Assembly (NCBI RefSeq): GCF_012927275.1
Contig: NZ_JABBGG010000018.1
Location: 1 to 52,214 of the forward strand
Reading direction: 5' to 3'
From: Massilia polaris
Lineage (GTDB): Bacteria > Pseudomonadota > Gammaproteobacteria > Burkholderiales > Burkholderiaceae_D
DNA: 52,214 bases
This document shows, in pieces, positions 2,619-49,520 of this stretch (the first letter of the stretch is position 1; each line of letters starts with the position of its first letter). The translations under genes were made by a program, and so were the position numbers. The notes beneath the pieces are model-generated. The model saw only the letters and a list, made by a program, of their open reading frames with translations, had not been told where the DNA came from and searched no databases.

Positions 2619-4000
2619 CCGGGCCGGATGTTCTGGTTGCTGCGGAAAAGGTTGTCGGGATCGTACTTCGCCTTGATTTCCTTAAGCCGGCGGTAGTTCG
2701 GGCCATAGGCTTCGGCGATCCGGTCGCCTTCGTCCTCATTGAGGAAGTTGATATAAACGCCACCGGCCGCGTGCGGCGCCGCCGCCTTGAAGAATTCGCG
2801 TGCCCAAGCCAGGCACTTGGCATCCTCGGCGGGCTCGAGCCAGCGGGTGTGCACGTTCATCGCGTACAGCGCGTCGCGGTGCGGATAGGCCATCTCGTCC
2901 GGGGCGTGTGTATTGGCCGCGCCGCCGAGCAGTCCGAGGAAAATTTCGCTCTGCTCAGATGGCAAATTGCCGGCATACTCGATCACCACGTCGATGGCGG
3001 CGTCGCTTAGCGTGTTGAAGTTGTGGGACTTCCAATAATTGCGCGCGGGCGGTACCAGCAGGGGATCGAAAATTTGCTGCCACGCGACGTACGGCATGGA
3101 GCCGATGTGTTCGCCCACTGGCTCGCCGAAACCGCGCAACTCGGCTACCGCGCCGTTCACTTCTTCTGATGGGAGTGGCGAGAAAAAGGCCAGCGCCACC
3201 ACCTCGCTTCCGTGCACCGCCGCAGGCAGGAATGGCAGGGGCGGGGCCTTGCGCAGCACCGCCCAGACCGAAATATTCTCATCCAGCGCCTCGACGTAGT
3301 CGCGGTATTTCCTTAGCACTGACCTGGCCTGTGCAAATGGGAAGACCATCAGGCCGCCGGTGACCATCGGACCGACTGCATGGAGCGCGAATTCGAATGT
3401 CGTTACCACTCCGAAATTCCCGCCGCCGCCGCGGATTGCCCAGAACAAGTCGGGATGGCTGTCGATGTCGGTGTGCAGCCGCTCGCCGTTGGCAATGACG
3501 ATGTCGGCCGAGACCAGGTTGTCGACCGCCAGCCCGTACTTGCGCGTTAGCCAGCCAAAGCCGCCGCCGAGCGTGAGGCCGCCCACGCCGGTGGTCGAAT
3601 TGATGCCGAGCGGCGTTGCCAGCCCATACGCCTGTGCCTCGTGATCGACGTCGCGCAAGGTCGCGCCGCCCTCGACCCAGGCCCGCATTTTATGCGGGGC
3701 GACCTGTACCGAGCGCATCATGCTCAGGTCGATCACCAGTCCGTCATTGACCAGGGCGCTGCCTGCAATGTTGTGGCCGCCGCCGCGAACCGCCAGTTGC
3801 AGGCCATGGTCGCGAGAGAAGTTGACCGCGGCCCGCACGTCGGCTGCGCCGGCGCAACGCACGATCATGGCCGGGCGCTTGTCGATCATCGCGTTCCAGA
3901 TCTTGCGGGCGTCGTCGTAATCAGGTTGGCCGGGCAGGAGCACGGCGCCCCTGAGGCTGCGCTCGAGCTCTTCGATCTCCATAACGCCTACGGTAGTCAT
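2612..4000 (-). CDS. FAD-linked oxidoreductase, berberine-bridge enzyme family
   Basis: A 462-residue flavoprotein of the vanillyl-alcohol-oxidase/PCMH fold. The FAD-binding domain covers about residues 40-210, with RGGGHNIAG (H76, the usual covalent FAD histidine) and GGLTLGGGFGWLTRKYGLA. IRGGGGNFGVVTTFEF leads into the substrate domain. The C-terminal BBE segment is recognisable as YGPNYRRLKEIKAKYDPDNLF near 435-455. Bicovalent members have a cysteine in the loop after TPxG; here it reads TPLGINSTTGVGG, so only single His attachment is expected. A GAAGGG site precedes the ATG at 4000. The gene stands alone. Such enzymes oxidise sugars or plant-type alcohols, but the substrate cannot be inferred. 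Confidence 0.88.
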   Translation of the reverse strand: MTTVGVMEIEELERSLRGAVLLPGQPDYDDARKIWNAMIDKRPAMIVRCAGAADVRAAVNFSRDHGLQLAVRGGGHNIAGSALVNDGLVIDLSMMRSVQVAPHKMRAWVEGGATLRDVDHEAQAYGLATPLGINSTTGVGGLTLGGGFGWLTRKYGLAVDNLVSADIVIANGERLHTDIDSHPDLFWAIRGGGGNFGVVTTFEFALHAVGPMVTGGLMVFPFAQARSVLRKYRDYVEALDENISVWAVLRKAPPLPFLPAAVHGSEVVALAFFSPLPSEEVNGAVAELRGFGEPVGEHIGSMPYVAWQQIFDPLLVPPARNYWKSHNFNTLSDAAIDVVIEYAGNLPSEQSEIFLGLLGGAANTHAPDEMAYPHRDALYAMNVHTRWLEPAEDAKCLAWAREFFKAAAPHAAGGVYINFLNEDEGDRIAEAYGPNYRRLKEIKAKYDPDNLFRSNQNIRPGP

Positions 4001-21870: not shown

Positions 21871-22066
21871 TCATGCGCGCAGCGACCTGAAGCTCGCGCG
21901 AACCTCTTCTGAAAAGATCTTTGGCTGTTCCCATGCGGCAAAGTGCCCGCCTTTGTCGAGCTTGTTGTAGTGGATGAGCTTGGGGAACGCCCGTTCCGCC
22001 CAACTCCGCGGGGTCGGATAGAGCTCGTCAGGGAAGACGCTGACGGCAACTTTCAATTTTGCTCAT
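21871..22066 (-). pseudogene. Epoxide hydrolase (EHN type) reduced to its two ends
   Basis: ATG at 22066, behind AAGGAGATAGCC, begins MSKIE. Within two codons the sequence jumps to the last 60 residues of an EHN epoxide hydrolase, one frame over: KVAVSVFPDELYPTPRSWAE, then LIHYNKLDKGGHFAAWEQPK, containing the terminal catalytic His (GGHFAAWEQP). About 320 residues are gone, including the nucleophile. The joint lies at TTGAAA, a plausible microhomology since the sister gene start also ends in GAAA. The Tn3-like element is inserted directly upstream of its ribosome site. Confidence 0.78.
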
Positions 22067-22076
22067 GGCTATCTCC

Positions 22077-22799
22077 TTATAGAGGCTCGGCCGGGATTCG
22101 TGTAAAAATACTCAAATTACGCTGTAACTGACTGAAGATCGCCTCGTACACGCCACACGGAATGAAATGGCTGAACAGCGCGATGTACATGTCGGACACA
22201 TGGTAATAGCCAATGCCGCCATACCCGCCGTAGCGGATGTGGTATTCGGAGAGCAGGTTTTGCTCGTACATATTCCACTTGGTCCCGTCGGCCGACGCGC
22301 GCTTCCCTGAGCCACAGTATTTCGGCAGCAGAAATTTGTTGTAAGCGTTGATGACCTGGACGATAGCTTTTTCAAGCCGCTCCTCGGTGATGTGGTGCAG
22401 GTTGAGCCAGGCTACCTGCTTGCGGCTCAGGTCCTTGACCGAGCGCGCGGTTTGCGTCGCGCCGAGGTTGCAGCCATAGCAGAACAGCGTTGTGATGAAC
22501 CGCTTGCGCGGGTCGTCGACCTTGGAGTCAAATCCGGACAGCGGACCGAACTGCTTATGCAGGTCCAGCCAGCCCTCCGACTCCACCAAGATGTCGAGGA
22601 TGTTTTTTTCGGGCAGCCGCGCGGTGAGAATTTTGTCGATCTTCTCCAGCGCCTCCGGCTTGGCGTCCTTCGCGTGCTTGCGCAGGATCAATTCGGTACC
22701 GACCAGGTCGACATGCTCATTTTCAGGCAAGCCGGCGTCGACGCGTGCGGCGGTTGCCGCAAGCGACGTTTTTAGCGCCGCTGAGGAGATGGCCACCAT
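22077..22799 (-). pseudogene. Tn3-family transposase TnpA, internal fragment joined to the end repeat
   Basis: About 215 residues match the central part of Tn3-type TnpA: FITTLFCYGCNLGATQTARSVKDLSRKQ, then RASADGTKWNMYEQNLLSEY with the first catalytic Asp, and IGYYHVSDMYIALFSHFIPCGVYEA with the second. After VYEA the frame runs straight into the inverted terminal repeat (IFTRIPAEPL) and ends at a TAA formed by the target duplication. The C-terminal region with the catalytic Glu is therefore deleted. The N-terminal half (over 500 residues) is also missing: upstream of the ATG at 22799 the frame is closed by a stop. The transposase is inactive. Confidence 0.88.
22082..22117 (+). repeat. Left inverted terminal repeat
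   Basis: Begins GAGGCTCGGCCGGGATTCGT and continues GTAAAAATACTCAAAT. It differs from the right end at positions 5, 6 and 31. The flanking TTATA is at 22077-22081. Its inner edge is translated as the tail of the truncated TnpA. Confidence 0.88.
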
Positions 22800-22921
22800 C
22801 TTGGGGCATCAGGTGCGGGTGGAAATCGGTTGAAATCATCGCGAAGAAGATGTGGCATCGGGGCGACCGCATCACCGGGCGCGATATCGCATGTCAATAA
22901 GAGTGTTTAGCAATTCGGCGC

Positions 22922-22940
22922 TGGAGCGCTCGACGCTCCA
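22922..22940. other. Candidate resolution site core between tnpA and the recombinase
   Basis: Perfect inverted repeat TGGAGCG / CGCTCCA with a 5-bp centre CTCGA. Tn3 relatives with a tyrosine recombinase place the recombination core next to that gene, as this one is. The arms are shorter than typical cores, so this is a suggestion from position and symmetry. Confidence 0.35.
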
Positions 22941-23052
22941 ATTGTCGTGCTGGTGCACTTAATGCAGCAGCAACTTGCAGCGATTTCTGCCTCCTGGAAT
23001 CCGCCGATAATGGGGGATTTGGGAAAGTGAAAAAGTCTTGGGCAAAGCGAAC

Positions 23053-23910
23053 TCAGGTCGGCTTGATCCGCGAGCGCAGCAGACTTCCGGCCGCGTTCTC
23101 TTCAAACAACCCTGCCTCCTCGATGTACCCCTGCACCGTCCCGTCGTGGCGCCAGCCGCCTTGCTTTTTGATATCTCGGAAGTCGGCGCCGGCGCGGTGC
23201 GCGCTGGTGGCCATGCCACGGCGCAGACTGTGACTGGACAGGTCCGGCACATAATCGAGCTGCGCCAACGTCGCGCAGTCCGCGAGGACCGTGTTGACGC
23301 TCCCTACGGCCAGAGCAATGCCGGCCGCCTTGCCCCACTTGGTGACCGACCGGAACACCGGTCCGGCCGCGATGCCTGCAGCGTCCAGCCAAGCGCGCAG
23401 CGCCTTGGCTGGACAGCATGGCCCGTCGCTGTATGGGATCGCCTTGGTGATGCCTTCCCCCGTTTGATCGGTCTTCGAGCGCGGCAGCGCGATTTCGATG
23501 CCCTCCCGCCTCCAAAGGACGTGCTCGACCTTGATGCCTACCAATTCACTGCGCCGGAAACCGCCGAAAAATCCGACCTGTAGCAGCGCGCTGTCGTGCG
23601 ACGCCTTCAGCGTTGAGATGTCGGCCAGTCGCGCCACAATCAACTCCAGATCCTCGATCGGCAGCGCCTTGGCCTTTTTCTTCGGGCGACCATGCGTGCG
23701 CGCGACGCCGGCCAGTGTTTTCCGGACGGTAGGCGTCGATGTCGGGTCCGCAAAGCCCTGGTGCGCGTGCCACTGCGACAGCGCCGTCAGGCGCAGCGCC
23801 AAGGTGCGCGGGTTGAGCGCGATCACCCATGCCGACGCAATGTTGATTTCCGTCAACTGCTCACTAAGCAGAAAAATAAGCCTATCAGTGCAACTTCGTT
23901 GAAAATACAC
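23053..23910 (-). CDS. Tyrosine-type site-specific recombinase (probable transposon resolvase)
   Basis: A 285-residue integrase-fold protein. The catalytic set is complete: Arg in GFFGGFRRSELVGIK, Lys region LPRSKTDQTGEG, HSLRRG (HxxR), WRHDGTVQGYIEEAGL with the W/H position and the tyrosine. The N-terminal DNA-binding part is short: only LNPRTLALRLTALSQWHAHQG and the region up to GRPKKKAKALP are recognisable, and the first 30 residues look unrelated (MYFQRSCTDRL), so the true N-terminus may have been lost. It lies beside the tnpA fragment in the same direction, as in Tn3 elements that resolve cointegrates with a tyrosine recombinase. Confidence 0.82.
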   Translation of the reverse strand: MYFQRSCTDRLIFLLSEQLTEINIASAWVIALNPRTLALRLTALSQWHAHQGFADPTSTPTVRKTLAGVARTHGRPKKKAKALPIEDLELIVARLADISTLKASHDSALLQVGFFGGFRRSELVGIKVEHVLWRREGIEIALPRSKTDQTGEGITKAIPYSDGPCCPAKALRAWLDAAGIAAGPVFRSVTKWGKAAGIALAVGSVNTVLADCATLAQLDYVPDLSSHSLRRGMATSAHRAGADFRDIKKQGGWRHDGTVQGYIEEAGLFEENAAGSLLRSRIKPT

Positions 23911-24341
23911 GCATTGTCACGAGTTGATCGGGACTCGGATGAGTCCCGAAGGTCGCCGGTCAGCGCCGTACCCTAGAATCTCGGATTTCTACGATGCGAA
24001 TCATGTGACAAAGTGAATTTGGATAAACAAACCGGCCGCAAAAGTAGACCGAAGATGCAGGAGCTTGGGGCCAAGACGAACTTCACTTGACCGCGCGCGC
24101 CGTTGGCGATCGAGAGAGATTAGGACCTGGATCCGTTATCTCGAGTTCCAGCCCGGCATCCTGACATCCGCATCAGACCCAGGATGACTCTTTGAGTGAG
24201 GTCACGGTCGAATCCCGCGCCGGGATGCGGCGGTGGGTGTGCACTTAACACCCGGTAGTTAAGGCCATCCGGAGTAGAACTAGTCACCCGACGCTTCTTT
24301 ACAAGATACACTGAAACATTAACCTTCCATCGGAGGTTGGC
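23911..24341. other. Non-coding stretch inside the transposon, with a stem-loop
   Basis: No supportable gene. A 7-bp hairpin CGGGACT / AGTCCCG with a 6-nt loop lies at 23929-23948, just upstream of the recombinase gene. It could be part of a recombinase binding site or a transcription barrier. The rest shows no recognisable motif. Confidence 0.4.
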
Positions 24342-24834
24342 ATGGCGACCTGTCAGCTAAGAAGCAACTTCTCACCCGGGATGAAAGCCTGGTTTACCAA
24401 TTACTGGCGGGACGCGGCAAGGTGGAGCTCAACATTGCCAGGGTTGAGCGTTACTTTGTCCCCTTCGTATCCTTCCTTTCGGACGATCAGGCCCCGCGCG
24501 TCCAATATGGCGCGATTGTTCACAATAGGACGGACGTGTTGGGGCCGAGACCGTGGCCGACTTGCTCGTTATGCTCAACGACATGACCGGCCGGGCGGCC
24601 AAATTGAAAGTCGTGTTCTATGGTGGACTCGCCCGCAGAGACAACTGGGCCGCATTGCCTCCTTGTGCTAAGGCGGCTTACGTGGTGTTTGGTCCACGGC
24701 GGCTATCGTCAAGACTCTGCAGAGACAATGGCGGCCTCGTGTCCGCGGTAGGCAACAAACTTTCCGGGTTTCGTCCACCTCGAAAAAATTCAAAGTCGGC
24801 ATTGAGTAATCGTTTTCGCATGGAGGTTAAAGGA
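24342..24834 (+). pseudogene. Decayed reading frame upstream of the GGDEF-EAL gene, unrecognised
   Basis: Behind a GGAGG site the sequence around 24350-24540 reads GDLSAKKQLLTRDESLVYQL then LNIARVERYFVPFVSFLSDD in one frame. One frame over it continues as ETVADLLVMLNDMTGRAAKL and VVFYGGLARRDNWAALPPCA, running into the regulator gene without a stop. Both stretches look like protein, implying a frameshift near 24545. The second part is in frame with the regulator, so a long fusion is formally possible, but the regulator has its own GGAGG/AAAGGA site. Family unknown. Confidence 0.4.
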
Positions 24835-27357
24835 ATGAAGGATGAACGCATCGAGCGTGCGGCAATTGTTTTAGTCATCGATGATGATCCCTTCATTCGG
24901 TTGCTCGTACGCGACTGCTTGGAAAAGACCGGCCTGGCGGTATATGAGGCCGTTGATGCTGCGTCGGGGTTAGCCGCGATTGGAATGCACACACCTGACA
25001 TCGTCCTGCTCGATGTCGTGATGCCAGGCATCAGCGGCTTCGAAGCTTGCCGCCAAGCGCGCCAGCTCCCCAGCATGCAATTCTGCCCCATCGTTATGCT
25101 TACCTCCCTTGAGGATACGGACTCGGTCACGCAGGCCTACGAGGCTGGCGCCACCGATTTCATCAGCAAGCCTATCAACTGGCAGCTGCTCCAGCATCGG
25201 GTACGCTTTATCTTAAAGGCATCTGAATCATTTCGTTCCATACAGAAGAGCGATTTGCAGCTGGCTAATGCACAACGGATATCGTCGGTCGGCAGTTGGG
25301 AGTGGAACATCAATGCCGACACCGTGTCTTGGTCGAATGAGATGTATCGTATCTGCGGCGTGCGCCCTGGGACCTACGGTAAAAACTATCAGACCTTTCT
25401 GGCGCTTGTACATCCAGCGGACCGGCTACAGGTCGAGGCGGCAGTACGTGATGCACTCGATCAAGGGCCGCCATACGACTTGGAGCATCGCTTATTGCTA
25501 GCTGACGGCACCGAACGCCATGTGCATGGGAAGGGCGATGTCGTGTTCGACCTCGCTGGCAAGGCTATTTCGATGAACGGAATGTTGCAGGATATCACCC
25601 AGCGCATGCTGGATCAGCAACGCATTCATTATCTCGCTAACTATGATGCACTGACTAGTCTCCCTAACCGCAATCTTTTGGAGGATCGCATGCTCCAGGC
25701 GATCACCCAAGCCAAGCGCAACAGCGACGGCATCACCGTTCTGTGTCTCAATTTGGATGGGTTCAAGTTCGTCAACGACAGTTATGGTCACGCCGTTGGC
25801 AATAGCTTGCTCAAGAAAGTTGCCGTTCGCCTTAAGGAGGCTGTCCGCGAGTCCGATACCGTTGCATGTCTCGGTGGCGATGAATTTGCGCTAATCTATC
25901 CCGGTTTGGTCAACAACAGTGACGTGATGCGTTCGGTGCACAGAGTCTTGGGCCTGTTCGCTGAGCCATTTATAGTGGACTTGCGTGCTATTCACGTCAC
26001 TGCAAGTATCGGTGTCTGTCTTTATCCCGATGACGGTGAAAACGTTGGCGTATTGTCTAAGAACGCCGACGTGGCCATGCACGAGGCTAAAGAAAGTGGT
26101 CGAAATTGCTATAAATTCTATGCGCAGGAAATGGGACGTCGTATTGACCAATATGTGGAAATGGAGAACGCCCTGCGAGTGGCGCTCGACCAGAATCAAT
26201 TCGAGGTCTACTATCAGCCCAAGGTCAATCTTCGCAGTGGAAAATACTGCGGGGTAGAAGCGCTGATCCGTTGGAACCATCCGCAGAATGGCATGATCCA
26301 GCCCGGCACCTTTATTTCCCTGGCTGAGAAGTCGGGAATGATTTGCCCGATTGGGGAATGGGTAATGCGCACGGCCTGCGCTCAGGCCAAGGAGTGGTGT
26401 GAAATGGGTTTTGATGACATATCGGTTGCGGTCAACCTCTCGGCATACCAGTTTAGTCACGAAAACGTGGCGAACCTCGTGTCGCGCATACTCTCCGATA
26501 CCGGACTAGGGGCCCATTACCTTGAGCTTGAATTGACCGAGAGTATGCTTATTAGCGATAGCGACAACATGCTTATGGCTCTGCGCGAAATTAAGGCAAT
26601 CGGCGTCACACTCACACTCGACGACTTCGGAACCGGCTATTCAAGCCTGGCTTACCTGAAGCGATTTCCCTTCGACGTCATCAAGATTGACCGCAGCTTT
26701 GTCCGCAATATAACAACAGATGCAAACGACGCGTCGCTGACCAAAACTATCGTGTTGATGGCCAAGTCCTTGAAAATGAAAACCGTCGCCGAGGGCGTGG
26801 AAACGCAGGGGCAGTTGGGCTTCCTCAGTTCAATCAAATGCGATGTCGTGCAAGGCTTTTACCTTAGCAAACCGATCAACGCGGCCGCTCTGACTGAACT
26901 GCTGCGCAAGCAGAAGGGCCATCCCGTTGTGCCGCGTGAGTCCGTGCCTGAACGAACCATCTTGCTGTTGGATGACGAACCACATGTGCTAAGTGCGCTC
27001 AAGCGCGCTTTTCGCAACGAAGGTTACCAGATACTTCAGACCACGTCCGCAATCGAAGCCTTCGAACTGCTGGCCATGCATCGCGTCCAAGTGATCATCA
27101 GCGACCAGCGCATGCCAATCATGTCCGGCACGACCTTCCTGTCCAAGGTAAAAGAACTGCATCCTGAAACGATCCGTATTATTCTTTCTGGCTATACAGA
27201 ACTCAACTCGGTCATTGACGCAATCAATCATGGCGCCGTGTATCGTTTCTTTACGAAACCGTGGGACGATCAGAATCTGCGCGATCAGATTCGGGAGGCA
27301 TTTGAACACCAGTGGCTGCTTCATGGCAGGCCGCATGAGCATTTATTGCAAATGTAG
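24835..27357 (+). CDS. REC-PAS-GGDEF-EAL-REC c-di-GMP regulator
   Basis: An 840-residue cytoplasmic protein with five domains. An N-terminal receiver (about 9-127; phospho-acceptor D60 in VLLDVVMPG) is followed by a PAS domain (150-258). A diguanylate cyclase domain (263-430) has intact GGDEF at 347-351 and an RESD I-site at 338-341. A phosphodiesterase domain (440-690) has intact EAL at 475-477, plus LTES, DDFGTGYSSL, KIDRSF and EGVET. A second receiver (708-825; D757 in ISDQRMP) ends the protein. Both c-di-GMP domains keep their key residues, so it could make and break c-di-GMP. Two receivers suggest control by the kinase encoded 39 bp downstream, which has its own REC and HPt. Start at 24835 chosen for AAAGGA and because the receiver begins nine residues later. 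Confidence 0.92.
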   Translation: MKDERIERAAIVLVIDDDPFIRLLVRDCLEKTGLAVYEAVDAASGLAAIGMHTPDIVLLDVVMPGISGFEACRQARQLPSMQFCPIVMLTSLEDTDSVTQAYEAGATDFISKPINWQLLQHRVRFILKASESFRSIQKSDLQLANAQRISSVGSWEWNINADTVSWSNEMYRICGVRPGTYGKNYQTFLALVHPADRLQVEAAVRDALDQGPPYDLEHRLLLADGTERHVHGKGDVVFDLAGKAISMNGMLQDITQRMLDQQRIHYLANYDALTSLPNRNLLEDRMLQAITQAKRNSDGITVLCLNLDGFKFVNDSYGHAVGNSLLKKVAVRLKEAVRESDTVACLGGDEFALIYPGLVNNSDVMRSVHRVLGLFAEPFIVDLRAIHVTASIGVCLYPDDGENVGVLSKNADVAMHEAKESGRNCYKFYAQEMGRRIDQYVEMENALRVALDQNQFEVYYQPKVNLRSGKYCGVEALIRWNHPQNGMIQPGTFISLAEKSGMICPIGEWVMRTACAQAKEWCEMGFDDISVAVNLSAYQFSHENVANLVSRILSDTGLGAHYLELELTESMLISDSDNMLMALREIKAIGVTLTLDDFGTGYSSLAYLKRFPFDVIKIDRSFVRNITTDANDASLTKTIVLMAKSLKMKTVAEGVETQGQLGFLSSIKCDVVQGFYLSKPINAAALTELLRKQKGHPVVPRESVPERTILLLDDEPHVLSALKRAFRNEGYQILQTTSAIEAFELLAMHRVQVIISDQRMPIMSGTTFLSKVKELHPETIRIILSGYTELNSVIDAINHGAVYRFFTKPWDDQNLRDQIREAFEHQWLLHGRPHEHLLQM

Positions 27358-27396
27358 GGCACCACGCCTAGTGGCTTAACCTCGTAGGAGACCGTC

Positions 27397-29913
27397 ATGA
27401 CATCGTTGGTGCGATCGGGGATATTGGCACTGCTCCTGCTATTGGCGTCGGGCTTTGCGATGGGAGATGGACAACAGGCTCGGGCATTAGTGGTCGGCAG
27501 TGAGGAGGAATTCCCTCCATTCTCCACCGGAACCACCAGCGCGACAGCCGGAGGATTCACTGTGGAATTGTGGAAGGCGGTGGCCAAGGAACAGGGCCTG
27601 ACCTATACCTTGAGGGTCGCTCCCTTCAATCAAATTCTTCAGGAATTCAAGGACGGAAAAATCGATGTTCTAATCAATCTTGCACAATCTGAGAAGAGGC
27701 GCCAATTTTCCGATTTTACTGTGCCTCATGTGACAGTCAATGGTGCAGTATTTGTACGGGCGGGCGAGTCTAATATCAATGTTGAATCGGACCTGACGGG
27801 AAAATCGATAATTGTTGTGCAAGCCGATTTGGCGCATGACTATGCGTTGTCCCAAGGTTGGAAAAATCGGCTCGTGATCGAGCCGACGGCTACGGATTGT
27901 TTTAAACTCTTGGCCTCGGGAAAGCATGATGCGGTACTTATTAGCAAGTTGGTGGGAATGCAAACACTACAGGCATCTAATATTCACAATGTCAAGCCGT
28001 TGGATATCAAAGCTGGTTTTGCACAAAAATTCTCGTTCGCCGTAAAAAAAGGGAATGCCGAATTGCTCGCAAGCATCAATGAAGGCATGTCCATCGTAAA
28101 ATTAAACGGTACCTACGACCACATTCACGACAAGTGGTTTGGCATCTACGAAGTGCGCAAAGTGTCGCTGCGCGATGTCTTACCGTATTCGATTCCGGGG
28201 CTGATTTTGGTCCTAATACTGCTGGGCTATGTCGCGCATCGACGTCGTATTGAAAATATGCTGCGTCACTCGAATGAAAATCTGGAGGAGCGGGTTGCGT
28301 TGCGCACGCGGGAGCTCGAAGTGGCAAAGGATTTTGCTGAATTGTCGTGTCGCGCCAAGGGAGATTTTCTTGCTAATATGAGCCATGAAATTCGCACACC
28401 GATGAATGCGGTTATCGGCATGCTGCATCTGACATTAAAAACCGACCTCAAACCAAAACAGCGCGACTATCTGGAAAAGATAAGCGTGGCCAGTAATCAT
28501 CTGCTCGGCATCATCAACGATATACTCGATTTTTCGAAGATCGACGCGGGAAAGCTGGATATCGAGGTAATCGATTTCGATATAAAGGGGCTGCTTCAAA
28601 ACGTACACGATCAGGTATTGTTCAAGGCGCTGGAAAAGAGCATGCGCGTACGTTTGGAAATCGATCCGAACTTACCTCGTTACCTACAGGGAGACCCGCT
28701 GCGTCTGACGCAAGTACTGCTCAACTTCGCCAATAATGCGGTTAAATTTTCAGTCAGCGGCGAGATCGTTATCGCCGCTTCGGAGAATAACGCTGGGACC
28801 GATGACAGCTTGGTCCGTTTTGAAGTACGCGATAGCGGCCCTGGCATCAGCAGCGACGAACAGGAGAAATTGTTCCAGCCGTTCCAGCAGGCCGATACGA
28901 CGACCACACGTCGCTACGGCGGCACCGGTCTCGGACTCGTCATCAGTAAACAGTTGGTGGCGATGATGGGCGGTACCGTCGGGGTGAATAGTAAGCTTGG
29001 TCAGGGAAGCATTTTCTGGTGTGAGATACGTTTTGCGTTTGGCCGCGCGCCGCTCGGAAATGACGATATGCGCGCACGGAAAAACACACCCTGTTTGAAC
29101 GGGATGCGTATTTTGCTTGCGGAAGACAACCTGCTCAACCAACAAGTGGCAGGCGATCTGTTGGAGGATGCGGGCGCATTGGTCACAGTCGCATGCCATG
29201 GAGCCGAGGCGCTGGAACTGTTACGGGAGAAGTCTTTCGACTGTGTTTTAATGGACATTCAGATGCCGGAGATGGATGGTCTGGAGGCGCTCAAGTGCAT
29301 CCGAGCAGATCCAGCCCATCGCGACCTGCCAGTGATCGCGCTCACCGCCAATGCACGTAGCCAAGAGCGCGAGCACTACATTGCCTCGGGTATGGATGAC
29401 GTCATCAGCAAACCGATAGACGCCACGCTGTTATTTGAGATTCTCTTGAAGTGGGTAACCTTGCCGGAATCTGGGGCGCAAGTGCAGGCACCCGCTCCAG
29501 CCGGACCGCCAACCGAAATTGCGAACCAGCCGGACCAGCCCATCGATGTCACACCGCTGCTTGGACCGCAGGATTTCGATTTGTCGGTATTGTCCAAGCT
29601 TTGCGTCGATAATCCACAGCGCTTAGAACGCTATGTCGAAGTGTTTATTGACTCGTTGCAGCACGCTATAACGGAGATCAACGTGGCATTGGAGGAGCAA
29701 GATAGTGCGGCGATCAGTGCATTGGGTCATAGAATCAAGTCAACAGCCAGCACCGCCGGCGCCACAGGTTTGGCCGATCTGGGACGCTTGCTGGAAGCGA
29801 CGCGAACAGACGCTAACTTGGAGCTGGCAAGCGAACTTATTGCTCGACTTCCAACTTACTTGGCGGTAATCAAGTTATTGGCCGAATCGCATCAAATTCG
29901 GATGTCTCCATAA
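27397..29913 (+). CDS. Hybrid histidine kinase with periplasmic solute-binding sensor (SBP-HK-REC-HPt)
   Basis: An 838-residue inner-membrane sensor. A signal-type helix ([15 protein letters not shown]) is followed by a type-3 solute-binding domain (about 28-252; [35 protein letters not shown]) facing the periplasm. A membrane helix covers 264-281. The kinase core has H330 in [10 protein letters not shown], the N box NFANNAVKF and DSGPGIS plus [14 protein letters not shown] receiver has D620 in LMDIQMP, and a C-terminal HPt has H778 in [10 protein letters not shown]. This is the BvgS/EvgS architecture without a PAS domain. The type-3 domain suggests an amino acid or similar small ligand. A GTAGGAG site precedes the ATG. 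The HPt could pass phosphate to either receiver of the upstream c-di-GMP protein. Confidence 0.93.
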
Positions 29914-30066
29914 AACTGTATAAAACTGCCGGCCGATTGTAGGGATACAGGTGCAGCCGGTATGGATCGGATAGAGGGCCATCCCTTGTCATCTCACCAC
30001 CACCCGGAAAAAAATGGCATCGACCAACGCCATGTGAATCTCAATAAATCAATGAGTTGCAGAGGG

Positions 30067-30102
30067 ATTTGGGTATTTTTACACGAATCCCGGCCGGCCC
30101 TC
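30067..30102 (-). repeat. Right inverted terminal repeat
   Basis: Read inward on the minus strand it begins GAGGGCCGGCCGGGATTCGT, matching the left end. TTATA at 30103-30107 duplicates the target. The 150 bp between the kinase stop and this repeat holds no recognisable gene. Confidence 0.88.
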
Positions 30103-30235
30103 TTATAGGTATGCTTGAAATTATTCCATACACTCTACAAAGTTCCAAGGCCCCCTGATGGCGTGTGGACATCAGGGAAGCTGGCCGATCGCTCCGGGTG
30201 CGGTCGCCGCCACGCAATCGGACTGAAGGCCGGAA

Positions 30236-30634
30236 TCAGCTCAGCGCGCGGAAGAAATCGCGGACGTCCGTGATGATGGCCAGCGGTTCTTCCCAAGCCA
30301 TTGGCGCTTGGTCGGCGTCGTAGTCTTCGGGCGCTGGCGTACGGCCGGAGGTGCGCCAGAAATTAACGCCGGTCGTACGCAACGGGGTAGAGAATCCATA
30401 GCCCGGCAAAGAGGGCATCACCAGGTCGAAGGCATCGGCGGGATCGCCGCCGTACGCGCCCGGATCGGTGAGGGGATCGATCACTTTCCGATACTCCCAG
30501 AATGTCCAGGGCCAGCCGTGTGAAAGGATCAGCGGCTTGGGATTCGCTCCCTCGTCGACCCAACGCGTCAGCTTGAGACGCACGCGCAGGTCGTTGAGCA
30601 CTTTATCGGGCACATCGACGCGAAATGGAGTCAT
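30236..30634 (-). pseudogene. Epoxide hydrolase (EHN type) with two in-frame internal deletions
   Basis: ATG at 30634 with AAGGAG upstream starts MTPFRVDVPDKVLNDLRVRL, an EHN N-terminus. After KLTRWVDE the protein skips about 70 residues to NPKPLILSHGWPWTFWEYRK and VMPSLPGYGFSTPLRTTGVN. After FWRT it skips the region with the nucleophile (GGDWG) and lands on PMAWEEPLAIITDVRDFFRAL, the C-terminal end. About 132 residues remain of some 390, all in frame. The nucleophile is absent and the terminal GHF has become PMA, so it cannot be a hydrolase. An in-frame remnant of this kind may still be translated. Confidence 0.78.
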
Positions 30635-30643
30635 AGCTCTCAC

Positions 30644-31750: not shown

Positions 31751-31942
31751 ATGCGAACAACAGTTAATCTAGATGATGAATTGCTCGCAAGAGCGCACGA
31801 CATTACGGGTCAGACGGAGCGTGGCGAACTCTTGCATGAGGCACTTCGTGCGCTGATTGAGCGCGAGGCTGCCCGTAGACTGTCTCGGTTGTCCGGAAGC
31901 ATGCCTGGCGCAAAAGATATTCCACGTCGTCGCGGTGGGTGA
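31751..31942 (+). CDS. vapB: VapB-type antitoxin
   Basis: A 63-residue ribbon-helix-helix antitoxin: MRTTVNLDDELLARAHDITG, then ERGELLHEALRALIEREAAR is the typical VapB (DUF2191) N-terminus. The basic/aromatic-poor tail SGSMPGAKDIPRRR normally wraps the toxin. GGAGG lies 6 bp upstream of the ATG. It ends 1 bp before vapC. It should repress its own promoter together with the toxin. The pair sits in an otherwise decayed stretch, which fits the persistence of toxin-antitoxin modules in eroding DNA. Confidence 0.88.
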   Translation: MRTTVNLDDELLARAHDITGQTERGELLHEALRALIEREAARRLSRLSGSMPGAKDIPRRRGG

Positions 31943-31943
31943 C

Positions 31944-32315
31944 ATGATCCTCGTTGACACATCGATTTGGATTGACCTTTTGCGTGGCTCGGGCCCATTG
32001 GGCGAAATGTTAAGCAGGAATGAGGTTCAAACGCATCCGTTTGTGATTGGAGAACTTGCCTGTGGCAGTTTGCCTGACCGCCCAACCACTCTTAAGCTAT
32101 TGCTGGAATTGCCGTCGGTGCGAGTTGCCGGGAACAGCGAAGTTCTATTTTTCATTGAGAAACATAACTTGATGGCTCGTGGGGTCGGCTATGTTGACAT
32201 GCACTTGCTTGCATCAGCAGCGCTAGACGCATGCAAACTCTTCACCCGCGACAAACGATTACACAACATCGCTGATGAGCTGGCACTCGCTCACGTAGTC
32301 CAGCGAAAAACCTAA
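31944..32315 (+). CDS. vapC: VapC toxin, PIN-domain ribonuclease
   Basis: A 123-residue PIN-domain endoribonuclease. Acidic metal-binding residues are visible in MILVDTSIWIDLL (D5), IGELACG (Glu), GVGYVDMHLLASA (Asp) and LFTRDKRLHNIA (Asp). The length is normal. The ATG at 31944 follows the antitoxin stop at once, so translation is coupled. VapC enzymes cut tRNA or rRNA; the target here is unknown. Confidence 0.9.
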   Translation: MILVDTSIWIDLLRGSGPLGEMLSRNEVQTHPFVIGELACGSLPDRPTTLKLLLELPSVRVAGNSEVLFFIEKHNLMARGVGYVDMHLLASAALDACKLFTRDKRLHNIADELALAHVVQRKT

Positions 32316-43107: not shown

Positions 43108-44361
43108 TCAATTTGGTAGCGTGAGTTGACCGCGCTCGTGATACGTTTCAGAGACAAAGTCAATGAAGGCAACCGCGGACGCTACCGCCAATCGAGCATG
43201 CCGAGCCTGGAGCCCCCTGTGCTGTCCGTCCCGTCCGTGTCCTGATCCATAAAGGCCTCGCAGTTGAGCAAGGTTATGAGTTACTTGGGTCAGGTTCCGG
43301 AGGATGAGACGAATGTTTTCCGCCCCCTTTGCTTCATCTGTTATATTTTCAGGCACGAGGCGCAGCTCCTTACAAAGCAGCTTCGTCAAATCGCCTAAGT
43401 CAGCCCCTCTGGAATACTCGATTCCACGCTTGGACAATATGCTTTTGCAGCACGATTCGACTAATTCCTTAGCGGTGCCGATTGCCAACGCGGGATCGCG
43501 TTCGATGGAATGTTCAAGCCTCTCGATCTCTTTCTGCATCCATCCAGCATCGAGAGCATCTGCAACTGTGCGCGCCCGTGAAACCGCGCGCTGGCCGTTC
43601 GAAAGCAACTGACGGAAGGAGAATCGTTGCCGACCCGCGATCTTTTCATCCTCGAAAAGCTCCCACGCAACCGGTCGCAATTGGTCGTTAAATTGCTTCA
43701 CCAACGAAAGTGCCGCATCGCGATCTGGTCGTACCACTGGATGAACCACCTCGCAGAGAAATCGAAGGAACAGCTCGGCGCGGCAGCTCAGCAAGTTAAA
43801 GCGAGGGTCGCAGAATACCCAATCGTCATCCCAGTCCGTGGGGTTGTTGATACGATGCTGCCAAATATCGCCTGACGCGTCTGGGAACCGATGATCGGTT
43901 GAAGGAAAGGACTTCAAATCGTATAACCGCGCGAGAAATGCGACCTCATCGAGCCGGCCACTCCAGCTCACGTTGTCTAGCGCAAATCCATCTATAATGG
44001 TTCTTCTAACTTCCTCCGGCAATTGACCAGGAGCGGCGCGCCAGTCTGGGCAAGTTTCGACTTGGGGAACAATCTTTACCGAGTAACTATCGCCGGTAAA
44101 TTGCTCAATTACGGCGGCCAGACGCTTAGATATCTGCTCTTCAATAGTCTGCCGTCTGGAACCTAGTTTCGCGTAGTCGCTGGCGTCGATGCTAAAGCTA
44201 ACCGTCCATAAATTTATGCCGCCATTCCAATTATCCCACCCCGTGATCTCCACGCGTGCTGGTGCCCGCCTGACCAATTCGGCCGCCTCAGTAAACCCTT
44301 CTGCACTTAGGAGATTGGTGACCGTTGCGAGCACTTGTTCAAATTCTTGGCTATTTTCCAT
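43108..44361 (-). CDS. Abortive infection-type protein (Abi-C domain)
   Basis: A 417-residue cytoplasmic protein. The C-terminal third has the Abi_C pattern found in AbiJ and similar defence proteins: IERDPALAIGTAKELVESCCKSIL, LRNLTQVTHNLAQLRGLYGSGHG and LQARHARLAVASAVAFIDFV. The N-terminal part (to about 240) has no motif I recognise; it includes DNVSWSGRLDEVAFLARLYD and a Trp-rich region WQHRINNPTDWDDDWVF. I use ATG at 44361; a GTG at 44406 is also open. It is the last of five minus-strand genes after the helicase and a small gene, with a gap of about 120 bp. Confidence 0.72.
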   Translation of the reverse strand: MENSQEFEQVLATVTNLLSAEGFTEAAELVRRAPARVEITGWDNWNGGINLWTVSFSIDASDYAKLGSRRQTIEEQISKRLAAVIEQFTGDSYSVKIVPQVETCPDWRAAPGQLPEEVRRTIIDGFALDNVSWSGRLDEVAFLARLYDLKSFPSTDHRFPDASGDIWQHRINNPTDWDDDWVFCDPRFNLLSCRAELFLRFLCEVVHPVVRPDRDAALSLVKQFNDQLRPVAWELFEDEKIAGRQRFSFRQLLSNGQRAVSRARTVADALDAGWMQKEIERLEHSIERDPALAIGTAKELVESCCKSILSKRGIEYSRGADLGDLTKLLCKELRLVPENITDEAKGAENIRLILRNLTQVTHNLAQLRGLYGSGHGRDGQHRGLQARHARLAVASAVAFIDFVSETYHERGQLTLPN

Positions 44362-44483
44362 TTGGCAGTTGTAGCGATTCAGACTATGGGAGAACGGTTG
44401 CAGCACGCAAAACTTGGCCTAAACGGGGTCACCAGTGACCTGTCTAGAGGTCAGACTCACGCGTCGCGCTCTGGAACAAATGC

Positions 44484-44765
44484 CTACGAAGCGTTGATGT
44501 GGAGGCTGGAATAGAACTCCAGGTTTGCCCTGCCCCGCGCCCGCTCAAGTCGCTTAGCAGTTTCAGCTGGTAGCAAGACGGCTGTGACCTCATTAATCAC
44601 AGCGCCTTGTTCGGCCCTGCAAAATTTAGCGAACAACTCGCCGAATTTTTCTACGAAAGAATATTGAGCCTCGGCGGCGTCAACCGCATACCCAATCCAA
44701 ACCATTAAAGTATGCCCCTCCCCTGTCGCGCCGTAATCAGCCCAGACCGTCCAGATCGTCTTCAT
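44484..44765 (-). CDS. Small protein of unknown function behind the helicase
   Basis: A 93-residue protein with no signal peptide: MKTIWTVWADYGATGEGHTL, then AEAQYSFVEKFGELFAKFCR. Predicted alternating strands and helices without a known motif. Its ATG lies 1 bp beyond the helicase stop, so it is translationally coupled to it. It is probably a partner or immunity-type subunit of the helicase cluster, but that rests on position only. Confidence 0.65.
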   Translation of the reverse strand: MKTIWTVWADYGATGEGHTLMVWIGYAVDAAEAQYSFVEKFGELFAKFCRAEQGAVINEVTAVLLPAETAKRLERARGRANLEFYSSLHINAS

Positions 44766-44766
44766 A

Positions 44767-47265
44767 TCAGCTCAGGGAAACAGTATATGTTCCGAAAAAC
44801 TGATCGGGGTGCAGCTTAAACTTGTACATCTCTTCAAGTACAAATTCGGGAGAGGCAAAAACGGGACCGAGTTGCGCGAGCTTTTGCATGAACTGGACGA
44901 GAGCGACGCCCAGTGCCGTACAGCCGGCCTGCGTCAGCACCCGCGTCTGCGGCGGGTAATTTGCATCGTGGTCAACGGCTGTGACTTTTGCGACCACAAG
45001 TGATTCAAACCGCTCGGCGAATACTGGATAGTTAGTTTGGGACCACTGCATACTGTCGTGCAGTTGACCCGAATCCTTCTTGTGAAGTGTCTTCAGGTTT
45101 TCATTTTTCGCTTCGATGACTAACGCGCGCGGGCCCCAGAACCAAAGGCCGTCCGGTCCGTCGCTAAATTCTTCGTCAGGCCGTGACGCTTCGGCCCCCA
45201 ATGCTTCGCCAAGCCGCATCAACGCGGCCTCCACCTTCTTGGATTTCTGATTTAGATCTAGTGCATTTGCAATTCGTTGGGCCTCGATCACTGCAGCGTT
45301 CGGATTGGCAAACTTGCCGAACCAGACGCACACCTTCTCAGCGACGGTTTTAGCGCCGGGCATAGCCGGTTTACGAGGGAGCGACGGGGGAATCGCAAGT
45401 GTAACGTTGTTCTCGCGCGCTGCCTGCTGGATGGCCATCGCTTCAACAACATCCGATAGATAGGTAATCCGCGAGAGGCGCTGAAGATGGATGCCAAGCT
45501 CATCACCCGTAAGCTTCGCCGTATGAATTGCCTTCTGAAGTAGCGGTTTCGCGTCGGCAGACATATTGTTGGATGCCATAACGTGGGCACGCCGCTCTTG
45601 TTCTGCGAGTTCGATCGTGGCCACCGCGATCTCTGGATTCTTTTTTGCGACGTCACGGACCTTTGCGTTGTAGTACTTCTTCCATCCCGGATCGCGATTG
45701 AGGCACTGTCCAATTACCTGACGAATCGCGGCATCGGGTTTGCCACCGCTCGACTTGCGGACCATATCAGCCAGCTCGATGCAGAGATTAATTTGATTGC
45801 GTGAGTCGTGAGTCATCGCACCCAGCACGTCCTTGCGACCGACGTATGTGGTCAGATCCTGTCCAGCCAGGAGTACCACGGCAAAATCAGCATGTGATCG
45901 CACCGGTCGCCCCATCCCCTGCTCTATCCGGAAAATTGTTCGATTGCGGACACCACCAGGTGTAACGGACATCGTCGAGTCGACCTTATCGATAAGTCCC
46001 GCACCGTAGGGCGTGCCGTCAATGACGAGTACTCGACAAGCGTCATCAGGAAGGTCCACGCCATCAAAACGCTGAGCGAAAACCGCGAAACGCGTACCCG
46101 ACCCTGGATTCTTTAGCCTGCGGACGCCTTCCGCAAAATTATCGTCTTTAAAATAGGTGGCACCCTTAGCTACCCAGTCCTCAGCCAGCTGACCGCTGGA
46201 TGTAAGAACCACCACGTTATGGGTTTTCGAAAGATCCGCGCAAAGATCCATTACGTAGGCCCTGTCGAGCTCCGGATCAATCAGCGACGGCGCGAGAATC
46301 ATTCGTTCTCCGAGGCCCCGGTCAGAGGGTGGCAAAATTGGATCAGATGCTGCCGCAGCTGAAACCCCTAGCTCGCGTGTCAGAAGCGAGTCGTCGGCCA
46401 ACGTAGCCGACATAAACAACCTGTGCTCGGCCTGGGCGTAAGCACGAACCTGTTCTGTGGGGAGAACCTCTGGGCTAATTTCTAGCTTTGTCCCGGATAT
46501 GACGCATCTGCAAAGCGGCAATATCCCGCTGAGATAGGGCCAGACGAAGATGAAATTCTGCTCGGCAGCGTACCCATGTAGGATTTGTTGAATCTCTTGA
46601 TAGGAATCGGTCCATATCCAATGGGGGACCTCCAGCAAGGCGCCAGGATCACCGCTCTCCACATCCATCCATTTGGTGCGGTGATAATTGCTGCAACACG
46701 GCGCCAGTACTTCGATGAGCCGGTTGTAGGCTTCTCCGGTTACTGTCAAAGTGAACTGCTTGCGGATATTTTCAACACCAGCATGAGCATCGTCGAGCAC
46801 GATGGCATGGGGCACCAAGTTGACCTTCGGGTTGGCGAAAGTGCTGCGTGCATTGAACAGCTTCTCATATGTGCAGACCATTACCGCGTCGCCCCGGGCG
46901 CACTCTTGGGGAGGGTACGTTTCACCGCCCAAGTAAGCCTTAGCCGGAATGCCGAGCCGGGCGGCTTCCTCGAGGACTTGATCGATGAGTTGGGAAGTCG
47001 GGCAAAGAAATACCACCGGTTCACCCGTGACGCGCATATACCCGTAAAGGTACAGCAGGCCGACCGTCGTTTTGCCCGCGCCGGTGCTTACCTTCAGCAC
47101 CGAATCCTTCTGGCCGCTCCGCTCCGTCAGAGCACGCATCGCTTCCCGCTGAGCGGGGCGTGGCTCCGTGTGCGTTCCTTTTACGTCGAGCGCGCCATAA
47201 AACTTTTCAAGGTCATATACGACCTCTTCTTGCTTTGCTCCGATCAGGCTGCCGAAATCAATCAT
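44767..47265 (-). CDS. SF2 DEAD/DEAH-type helicase with C-terminal PD-(D/E)XK-like region
   Basis: An 832-residue protein. Helicase core: Q-motif-like PRPAQREAM, Walker A STGAGKTT (60-67), DDAH box (158-161), SAT (286-288) and motif VI QGMGRPVRS (449-457). A helical region follows. Near the C-terminus DGLWFWGPRALVIEAKNENL has an acidic residue (D705), then E718-x-K720, with a Gln at 734, a layout like PD-(D/E)XK nucleases. It would unwind DNA or RNA and may cut it. It is the central gene of the five-gene cluster and is coupled to the small gene downstream. I do not match the full domain order to a named defence system. Confidence 0.82.
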   Translation of the reverse strand: MIDFGSLIGAKQEEVVYDLEKFYGALDVKGTHTEPRPAQREAMRALTERSGQKDSVLKVSTGAGKTTVGLLYLYGYMRVTGEPVVFLCPTSQLIDQVLEEAARLGIPAKAYLGGETYPPQECARGDAVMVCTYEKLFNARSTFANPKVNLVPHAIVLDDAHAGVENIRKQFTLTVTGEAYNRLIEVLAPCCSNYHRTKWMDVESGDPGALLEVPHWIWTDSYQEIQQILHGYAAEQNFIFVWPYLSGILPLCRCVISGTKLEISPEVLPTEQVRAYAQAEHRLFMSATLADDSLLTRELGVSAAAASDPILPPSDRGLGERMILAPSLIDPELDRAYVMDLCADLSKTHNVVVLTSSGQLAEDWVAKGATYFKDDNFAEGVRRLKNPGSGTRFAVFAQRFDGVDLPDDACRVLVIDGTPYGAGLIDKVDSTMSVTPGGVRNRTIFRIEQGMGRPVRSHADFAVVLLAGQDLTTYVGRKDVLGAMTHDSRNQINLCIELADMVRKSSGGKPDAAIRQVIGQCLNRDPGWKKYYNAKVRDVAKKNPEIAVATIELAEQERRAHVMASNNMSADAKPLLQKAIHTAKLTGDELGIHLQRLSRITYLSDVVEAMAIQQAARENNVTLAIPPSLPRKPAMPGAKTVAEKVCVWFGKFANPNAAVIEAQRIANALDLNQKSKKVEAALMRLGEALGAEASRPDEEFSDGPDGLWFWGPRALVIEAKNENLKTLHKKDSGQLHDSMQWSQTNYPVFAERFESLVVAKVTAVDHDANYPPQTRVLTQAGCTALGVALVQFMQKLAQLGPVFASPEFVLEEMYKFKLHPDQFFGTYTVSLS

Positions 47266-47406
47266 AAAAATATCCTAAGTCTGGCTCACGACTATCACAC
47301 TGCCACGTCGTTGTGCGGCCCAATCGACTAGCGTGGGTTGACACGTCTCGCTCATCGTGTTGTTCGAGCGCTGCAAGCAATATGGGGGAGAAATCTCAAC
47401 AGTTTC

Positions 47407-48504
47407 CTACTTCACTAGCCGGAGTCCGGTAGCCGGCGCAAGGTCATACATGGAGGACAGTTCGTGATAGTGCAGATGAAGAATTTTCGCGAGTTCTTCG
47501 TTCGTGTAGTCCATGTCTTCCACCATATTCCGCACGAGAACATCCATCACCGAAGTCTTCTCAGGCTCAAAATCGACAGCAGAAGGTTCACGCAGCCGGA
47601 AATTACGTATCGACATCTGCCGCCACAAATACCCTGCCTTGTTGCGGTCTATCCGTCCTAAATCCGATGCACGATAAATCATTGCCGCCATGGATACTTT
47701 CCAGACCGGCTTCATGTACGCGGCCTTTTCTAGCGTCAGTCCCTGCAACTCTGGGCCGATGTCACTTGCAGGCATGAGTAAGGCTGACGCAAACCGGTCT
47801 GCCTCTTCTTCCATATTGGGGCTTGGATAGGCATGCATCACAACGTGCCCGAGCTCATGCGCCAAGCTAAAACGCATTCGATCGGCCGGCTGGTCTTTGT
47901 TCAGAAAAATTATTGGCGGCAGCCCTGGAATTCGATAACTCACGCCATCAATTTTGGCGTCGTTAAGCGGGCAATGTACAACCAGGCATCCGGCACGTTC
48001 GACATGCTCGGTTAATGAACGCAAAGGACCGCGGGGCAGGAGCCAGGCACGCCTTACATTATTCGCGACCGCCTCGGGGTCCCCTCCCATGTCGTCAAGA
48101 TCGTAGAACGGGAGAGGAAGCTCGGGGTTCAATTCGACGGCAGACAAAAATTTTCTCACGTGCCCAATCCGAATGTTCAACTCGGCGATGACGCGATCAA
48201 GTACCTTTTGCGGGACCGAAGCCTTCTTCCGGTACATCGGGTGGGCGCTCATCGGCGCACCATATTCGCGTTCGGCCTGGTAAAAAAACGAAACAGGGCA
48301 TTCTAGCGCGAGCGCCAGCCGTTCCTGAACCTCATAAGTGCAATCCTTGATGCCCTGTTCTATTTTCGACAGGGCACCTTGAGTGATACCGGCCAATGCT
48401 GCCAATTCCGACTGGCTCAATGAGCGCATTCGACGTCGCAAACTTACAAGCTCACCGCGCAGGGGCCGGTCTAGTTCAACCGGTCGAAACATCTTGTTTA
48501 CCAT
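47407..48504 (-). CDS. XRE-family HTH protein fused to ImmA/IrrE metallopeptidase
   Basis: A 365-residue protein. The N-terminal Cro/CI helix-turn-helix is RMRSLSQSELAALAGITQGA, then LSKIEQGIKDCTYEVQERLA (about 25-70). The central domain carries the zinc protease motif in RMRFSLAHELGHVVMHAYPS (HExxH) and the following EEEADRFASALLMP (third ligand), as in ImmA/IrrE. The C-terminus is an uncharacterised helical region. ImmA-type proteases cleave XRE repressors to start a response, so it may sense damage or phage and control the cluster. It overlaps the upstream gene by 29 bp; 141 bp separate it from the helicase gene. Confidence 0.88.
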   Translation of the reverse strand: MVNKMFRPVELDRPLRGELVSLRRRMRSLSQSELAALAGITQGALSKIEQGIKDCTYEVQERLALALECPVSFFYQAEREYGAPMSAHPMYRKKASVPQKVLDRVIAELNIRIGHVRKFLSAVELNPELPLPFYDLDDMGGDPEAVANNVRRAWLLPRGPLRSLTEHVERAGCLVVHCPLNDAKIDGVSYRIPGLPPIIFLNKDQPADRMRFSLAHELGHVVMHAYPSPNMEEEADRFASALLMPASDIGPELQGLTLEKAAYMKPVWKVSMAAMIYRASDLGRIDRNKAGYLWRQMSIRNFRLREPSAVDFEPEKTSVMDVLVRNMVEDMDYTNEELAKILHLHYHELSSMYDLAPATGLRLVK

Positions 48505-49084: not shown

Positions 49085-49319
49085 ATTGCAACCTCTCATT
49101 GATTTCAATGAGGCAATGCTAACAGTCAACGACAAAAAGTACAACAAATTATTACCAAAATTATTCCCGTCGAGTCAAATCGCTAGCGGTTAGGTAAGGC
49201 GAAAACACGATTTCGCTCTCAACTTCTTCCTCTGATATGCTCCGCTCACGGCCTTGAGCGTTCAGCAAACGAATCCTGTACACTGACTACAACTGCGTCT
49301 TTAGATCGAACAACGCGAC

Positions 49320-49433
49320 ATGGCGCTCACGAAACACCCTCCTTCCGCGATTGTTACGCAATATAAGGCTGCTGCTGCCGCTCGCCGTGCGAAGATCGCT
49401 GCAACGATCACATCCGATGCTGAAGAGGTGTAG
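49320..49433 (+). CDS. Very small open frame before the structured repeats
   Basis: ATG at 49320 opens a 37-residue peptide, MALTKHPPSAIVTQYKAAAA then ARRAKIAATITSDAEEV, ending at TAG 49431. Codon use looks coding-like (Ala/Arg helix, basic), but no strong ribosome site precedes it. It lies about 90 bp upstream of the tandem stem-loop units on the same strand. It may be a leader peptide or chance. Confidence 0.3.
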   Translation: MALTKHPPSAIVTQYKAAAAARRAKIAATITSDAEEV

Positions 49434-49520
49434 CCGAGCTCAGGTCGAATTCGGGCCACGCTAAGCGGGAAAGCAATACCGCGAGATCGACAACACCAGT
49501 TGTTCGGCCCTTCGGGGATT

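What the first reader, a model, noticed from the sequence alone, without database searches (positions are those of the whole stretch)
22077..30107. Tn3-like transposon with a two-gene c-di-GMP phosphorelay as cargo
Seen: near-identical 36-bp inverted ends, a perfect 5-bp duplication TTATA, a tnpA fragment abutting one end, and a tyrosine recombinase. The cargo is a REC-PAS-GGDEF-EAL-REC protein (GGDEF, I-site and EAL intact) and an SBP-HK-REC-HPt kinase 39 bp apart. Tn3 elements usually carry resistance or catabolic genes; a full sensor-to-c-di-GMP relay with two receivers and an HPt is unusual cargo. It could move a lifestyle switch between strains.
Basis: partly seen in the sequence, partly recalled or inferred. 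Interest (0 to 1): 0.85.

Follow-up and report, generated by a model that had tools for sequence, protein, structure and literature searches.

The report
Stranded transposon carrying a signalling relay
An 8-kb jumping-gene element that has lost its own transposition enzyme has carried a sensor gene and a second-messenger enzyme gene into this bacterium's genome; the vehicle is of an ordinary kind, the cargo is unusual.

Summary
Window 22082-30102 is a Tn3-family element: 36-bp inverted ends (33/36 identical) and TTATA duplicated on both sides. A paralogous target site elsewhere in the same genome is empty and reads through with a single TTATA, so the 8 kb arrived as one unit. The element is non-autonomous: its tnpA is an internal fragment (92% identical to residues 522-738 of a 983-residue uninterrupted relative) without the second catalytic Asp or anything after it, and is the only Tn3-transposase match in the genome. 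The tyrosine recombinase lacks its N-terminal part. An uninterrupted tnpA beside the same kind of end exists in another genome of the family; a 36-kb sister stretch in the same genus carries metal-efflux genes. The cargo ORFs are intact: a REC-PAS-GGDEF-EAL-REC regulator and an SBP-HisKA-HATPase-REC-HPt kinase, 39 bp apart. No close relative of the pair was found in the genus. It resembles RocS1/RocR; a 48% regulator relative sits beside another HPt kinase on a Burkholderia plasmid. Signalling is inferred, not tested.

The parts
22077..22081 (.). left target-site duplication TTATA
   Evidence: sequence; single copy at the empty paralogous site
22082..22117 (+). left inverted end (36 bp; similarity to the right end runs to about 22135)
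22134..22778 (-). tnpA internal fragment, abutting the left end; 92% aa identity to residues 522-738 of the 983-residue TnpA stretch in L040
23053..23910 (-). tyrosine recombinase ORF, TnpS-like; about 253 C-terminal residues are homologous, the first 84-104 residues of the relatives have no counterpart
23911..24834 (.). spacer; four stop-to-stop frames of it scanned without a credible Pfam match
24835..27357 (+). c-di-GMP regulator, 840 aa: REC(D60)-PAS-GGDEF(I-site RESD)-EAL-REC(D757)
27397..29913 (+). unorthodox sensor kinase, 838 aa: periplasmic SBP_bac_3 - TM - HisKA(H330) - HATPase - REC(D620) - HPt(H778); TM judged by eye
30067..30102 (-). right inverted end
30103..30107 (.). right target-site duplication TTATA

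Best explanation
A non-autonomous Tn3-family transposon. Shown: an element bounded by a Tn3-type inverted pair was inserted as one 8-kb unit, with 5-bp duplication, just upstream of an OsmC-like start codon. Shown: its own tnpA and recombinase are remnants. Inferred: a relative with the same ends supplied TnpA in trans, or tnpA was deleted after insertion; either way this copy is now immobile unless helped. Cargo mechanism, inferred from architecture and residues: a ligand (amino-acid-like by fold family) bound by the periplasmic Venus-flytrap domain controls autophosphorylation at H330; phosphate passes to D620, to HPt H778, and on to D60 and/or D757 of the neighbouring regulator, which sets the balance of its GGDEF (synthesis) and EAL (breakdown) domains and so the cell's c-di-GMP level.
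For: Ends and duplication. Joined flanks align through the junction with G000:C27 (L073 2202-2378) carrying one TTATA. The tnpA fragment is 92% identical to residues 522-738 of a 983-residue TnpA stretch without stops that lies beside the same kind of end in G269 (L040) and passes the NCBIfam Tn3 transposase cut-off (693.7 against 500 bits). The second Asp motif HGDTH is at 756, beyond the fragment; L040 aligns to Tn4430 transposase. One PF01526 match in the genome, this fragment. Both cargo ORFs are open and hold the phosphorelay and catalytic motifs that I looked for. A regulator relative, 48% over 98%, lies next to a HAMP-HisKA-HATPase-REC-REC-HPt kinase on a Burkholderia stagnalis plasmid, which supports pairing. 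Nearest solved sensor domain: 3h7m 'Sensor protein', then amino-acid-binding proteins; BvgS further down.
Against: The empty site is a paralogue in the same genome, not an orthologous site in another strain. No relative carrying the same two genes together was found, so their partnership is not shown by conservation; in the Burkholderia case the gene order is reversed, the sensor differs, and its second receiver lacks the Asp-containing motif. Recombinases near other such ends are only 34-36% identical to this one, and the 76-82% relatives on plasmids have no tnpA within the stretches shown, so the vehicle may be a mosaic. Lower GC3 of the cargo (63 and 58) against 11 window genes (68-82) suggests foreign origin, but three genes at 43108-48504 have 56-60. 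No expression or biochemical evidence.
Confidence: 0.78

Rival explanations
1. The two signalling genes are old residents of the locus and the inverted ends are remnants of separate insertions that happen to flank them.
For: tnpA and recombinase are decayed, as in old debris.
Against: Identical TTATA on both sides and a paralogous site that reads through with one TTATA; no match of the kinase sensor above 30% identity among the rows for the 16 other genus genomes.
Confidence: 0.05
2. The element is still mobile in nature: a helper transposase with matching ends, entering on a plasmid or present in relatives, mobilises it and spreads the relay.
For: Uninterrupted tnpA with matching end in another genome of the family (L040); matching end cores in 10 of 294 family genomes, own included; the ends are well kept (33/36); Tn3-derived elements without a transposase gene were caught transposing (TIMEs, PMC4133298, abstract and section 21 part 1).
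Against: No other Tn3 transposase match in this genome, one copy only, no close relative of the cargo in the 17 end-bearing stretches examined, no match of the left end in 72,556 plasmids.
Confidence: 0.3
3. The relay does not work as a pair: the kinase feeds other regulators and the GGDEF-EAL protein is set by another kinase.
For: No co-occurrence of exactly these two genes found; the closest sensor domains (55% and 51%) are in proteins with other outputs, PAS and GGDEF (L187) and PAS (L188).
Against: 39 bp apart and co-oriented in one element; an HPt kinase lies next to a regulator of this architecture in B. stagnalis. In L111 a 39% regulator relative directly follows a kinase-like (HATPase) stretch, HPt not shown there.
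Confidence: 0.2

Closest known systems
TIME, TIME-COMP and other non-autonomous Tn3-family elements (PMC4133298; abstract and section 21 part 1 read)
   Same: Tn3-type ends, 5-6 bp AT-rich duplications, no working transposase, foreign cargo
   Different: those are bounded by miniature elements or carry a resolvase; here the left end is followed by an internal tnpA fragment, so it looks like an internal-deletion derivative; no miniature element recognised
Tn4651-type Tn3 elements with TnpS/TnpT resolution (PMC7157771; passages read)
   Same: tyrosine recombinase; its relatives on pADP-1 and a Janthinobacterium plasmid stand divergently next to a DNA-binding protein gene, the TnpS/TnpT layout
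   Different: recombinase truncated and no partner gene recognised; no named TnpS was compared
RocS1/RocR and ArrS/ArrR, BvgS-type sensor kinases paired with EAL response regulators (PMC12051241, PMC11841396; passages read)
   Same: SBP_bac_3 type sensor, HisKA-HATPase-REC-HPt relay, response regulator acting on c-di-GMP
   Different: one SBP domain and no PAS match in the kinase; regulator has PAS, GGDEF and a second receiver; carried on a transposon
Diguanylate cyclases on ICEs and genomic islands (PMC10672970; passages read)
   Same: c-di-GMP enzymes as mobile cargo that can change motility and biofilm
   Different: those vehicles are ICEs or islands and the cargo in the passages seen is DGCs; here a Tn3-type unit brings a sensor kinase together with a regulator

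Membership tests
Tn3-family transposon (insertion) | terminal inverted repeats of about 38 bp and 5-bp target duplication | tested here: met
   33/36 identical ends; TTATA both sides; single at empty paralogous site
Tn3-family transposon (autonomous) | intact DDE transposase of about 1000 aa | tested here: not met
   fragment of 217 homologous residues; profile 1-156 of 389; only match in genome
Tn3-family transposon (autonomous) | functional resolution module | tested here: not met
   recombinase N-terminal part missing, no divergent partner gene recognised in the spacer; activity itself not tested
TnpS/TnpT (Tn4651) resolution type | tyrosine recombinase homologous to TnpS with divergent TnpT | tested here: inconclusive
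   relatives at 82% and 76% have divergent neighbours; no named TnpS/TnpT sequence was compared
TIME-COMP | a miniature Tn3-derived element at each end | tested here: not met
   one inverted end on each side and no further internal copy; only two matches in the genome
BvgS/RocS-type unorthodox kinase | periplasmic SBP sensor, HisKA, HATPase, REC, HPt in one protein | tested here: met
   Pfam
Roc-type c-di-GMP relay | HPt of the kinase passes phosphate to the EAL regulator's receiver | not testable with these tools
   needs two-hybrid or phosphotransfer

The most novel reading that the evidence does not exclude
This family of Tn3 ends works as a general trans-mobilised carrier in the host's bacterial family (probably Burkholderiaceae in the GTDB sense, inferred): copies that have lost tnpA still move large modules, metal efflux in one genome and a complete ligand-to-c-di-GMP switch here, so that a lifestyle decision circuit spreads as transposon cargo.
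Probability: 0.2. Interest if true: 0.65.

Novelty: new variant of a known kind. Interest (0 to 1): 0.42.

Why it matters
Tn3 passengers are described as resistance, metal, catabolic, virulence and toxin-antitoxin genes (PMC7157771, passages). A clean insertion with an empty site, carrying a complete sensor-to-second-messenger relay, suggests that behavioural control circuits can be delivered as a transposon unit, and gives a defined pair of genes on which to test whether a newly arrived relay changes c-di-GMP in a naive host.

Tried and rejected
Literature: Tn3 family + diguanylate cyclase + transposon + passenger (0 papers), diguanylate cyclase + Tn3 + passenger genes (0), a six-term query (0); these cover open-access text only.

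Among the 14 best rows of a regulator search over the loci held by then, only L111 gave a near full-length match (39%). It says little about the pair; a scan with the sensor domain alone would have been better. The order-wide regulator search (1 of 399, self, at E 1e-200) scored only 2 candidates in each of the 21 genomes listed, so its silence is weak evidence.

I suspected a decayed cheD-like gene between recombinase and regulator; Pfam gave nothing credible in four stop-to-stop frames (one match at E 0.11), so I dropped it. The left end searched in 72,556 plasmid records gave no match at E 0.01. Promoter- and terminator-like sites over 24200-30107 were no more frequent than in shuffles (6 against 5.3; 5 against 5.4). 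No structure prediction was run.

Full report
What was checked. The finding describes an 8-kb unit at 22077-30107. The sequence gives TTATA at 22077-22081 and 30103-30107. The 36-base ends 22082-22117 and 30067-30102 agree at 33 of 36 positions, and the similarity continues inward to about 55 nt at 84%. In the whole genome (4,522,469 bases, 30 contigs) a 36-base pattern with up to 3 mismatches matches only these two places, in opposite orientation, and the pattern read backwards matches nowhere. This is beyond chance.

Proof of insertion. Searching the genus with each flank apart showed that the own genome holds paralogous copies of the neighbourhood (OsmC-like gene and epoxide-hydrolase-like gene), the most useful on contig C27. 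When the left flank up to and including TTATA is joined to the right flank after its TTATA, the product aligns in one piece with L073 (G000:C27) 2202-2378, 156 of 224 alignment columns identical with 48 gap positions; the first 32 columns, which hold the OsmC start region and the single TTATA, agree at 31. The paralogue is therefore an empty site with one TTATA. In the 16 other genus genomes no listed match reaches the bases next to the junction (left query 3052-3082, right query 1-287), so no orthologous site was available.

Anatomy of the vehicle. The tnpA piece (22134-22778, minus strand) matches the Tn3 transposase DDE profile only over positions 1-156 of 389. It is 92% identical to residues 522-738 of a 983-residue stretch without stops in L040, a contig of another genome of the family, G269; its start codon was not fixed, but it passes the NCBIfam Tn3 transposase cut-off. 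In L040 the same kind of end follows within about 50 bases. The window fragment keeps the first Asp motif (SADGT, 685 in L040) and lacks the second (HGDTH, 756) and what follows; L040 aligns to Tn4430 transposase, and that these motifs hold catalytic Asp residues is recalled. The deletion edge lies at the inner edge of the left end. PF01526 matches nowhere else in the genome at E 0.001. The tyrosine recombinase ORF (285 aa) aligns over residues 32-284 at 82% and 35-284 at 76% to recombinases of a Janthinobacterium plasmid and pADP-1, beginning at their residues 85 and 105, so its N-terminal part is gone. In both plasmids the recombinase stands divergently to a 'DNA-binding protein' gene, the layout described for TnpS and TnpT (PMC7157771, passages). 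No such partner was recognised here. Against a simple descent: neither plasmid stretch shows a tnpA, and recombinases near other such ends (L036, L038, L044, L046, L078) are only 34-36% identical to this one, so the element may be a mosaic. It is a non-autonomous, internally deleted Tn3 derivative.

Relatives of the vehicle. A 24-base core of the end (up to 2 mismatches) occurs in 10 of 294 genomes of the same family, own included. In G012, same genus, two such ends lie 36 kb apart with AATAGA outside both (read). The whole stretch was fetched; a tnpA query finds in it only a C-terminal piece, residues 889-983 at 61%. Of 10 of its proteins scanned, three pass the CusA/CzcA efflux cut-off, one the heavy-metal P-type ATPase cut-off, and one matches cation diffusion facilitators below the cut-off. 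Seventeen end-bearing stretches (234,503 bases, several lying mostly outside the element) hold no close relative of either cargo gene; the matches are 27-37% and domain-level.

The cargo. Regulator: 24835-27357, 840 aa, REC-PAS-GGDEF-EAL-REC, with GGDEF, an RxxD inhibitory site five residues before it, EAL, and receiver aspartates D60 and D757. Kinase: 27397-29913, 838 aa, SBP_bac_3, HisKA (H330), HATPase, REC (D620), HPt (H778); phospho-site numbers follow from the motif positions. Third-position GC is 63% and 58%, against 68-82% for 11 other window genes measured; four further window genes at 43108-51868 have 56-68%, so composition is suggestive only.

Distribution of the cargo. By DNA, the best match to the two-gene stretch outside itself in 17 genus genomes is 69% over 620 of 5,361 bases, in the kinase core. 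With the sensor part of the kinase, 15 of 17 genus genomes have matches at E 0.001, but outside the own gene these reach 30% identity and 60 bits at most, against 627 bits for the gene itself. In the order, 3 of 399 genomes match at 1e-30: own, G537 (55%) and G595 (51%). In the class, 1 of 369 at the stricter 1e-50, own only. In G537 the sensor is in one protein with PAS and GGDEF domains, in G595 with PAS domains, the latter next to an ORF that looks by eye like a response regulator with an HD-GYP output (not profile-tested). Among plasmids the best regulator match is a B. stagnalis protein, 48% over 98%, preceded by a HAMP-HisKA-HATPase-REC-REC-HPt kinase (overlapping by 4 bases) and a periplasmic binding protein gene. 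So an HPt kinase beside REC-PAS-GGDEF-EAL-REC is seen elsewhere, but with another sensor, the opposite gene order, and a second receiver without the Asp motif.

How it most likely works. The sensor domain's nearest solved relative by sequence is 3h7m, a 'Sensor protein', followed by amino-acid-binding proteins; BvgS is also found. RocS1, ArrS and BvgS are described with two periplasmic-binding domains, PAS, HK, REC and HPt, and RocR and ArrR as REC-EAL regulators (PMC11841396 and PMC12051241, passages). By analogy, ligand binding sets kinase activity, phosphate goes H330 to D620 to H778 to D60 and/or D757, and the regulator's net c-di-GMP output changes. All steps after 'the genes are intact' are inference. 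The direction of the output cannot be told: both catalytic domains keep their signature motifs, and the best NCBIfam matches of the regulator are phosphodiesterases, all below their cut-offs.

Verdict. The element, the duplication and the cargo are real, and insertion as a unit is shown. Mobility of this copy today is not: no transposase was found. Mobilisation in trans is possible, as for TIMEs (PMC4133298, abstract and section 21 part 1), and an uninterrupted relative of the transposase exists. Carriage of diguanylate cyclases by ICEs and islands is known (PMC10672970, passages); carriage of such a relay by a Tn3-type unit was not found in three searches of open-access text.

Noticed in passing
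21878-22077 and 30236-30643: The flanks hold broken pieces: the first codons of an OsmC-like gene run directly into the 3' part of an epoxide-hydrolase-like gene on the left, and an epoxide-hydrolase-like gene with internal deletions relative to its paralogue lies on the right. The left junction is about 27 bp outside the element.
   Followed up: partly
own genome C27, C2, C23, C1 (L073-L076): Several diverged copies of an OsmC-like and/or epoxide-hydrolase-like neighbourhood in one genome, suggesting repeated duplication.
   Followed up: partly
G012:C1 4656435-4692427 (L036, L037): 36-kb stretch between the same kind of ends with AATAGA on both sides, carrying metal-efflux genes and only a C-terminal tnpA piece.
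   Followed up: partly
G269 contigs C6, C9, C11, C13, C14: Assembly contigs stop within a few bases of these ends, as expected if several copies of the element are present in that genome.
   Followed up: no
31857-32315: PIN-domain protein downstream of a short ORF that looks by eye like a VapB-type antitoxin: possible VapBC pair in the right flank.
   Followed up: no
23911-24834: About 0.9 kb between recombinase and regulator with frames interrupted by stops and no credible Pfam match; possibly a decayed gene.
   Followed up: partly
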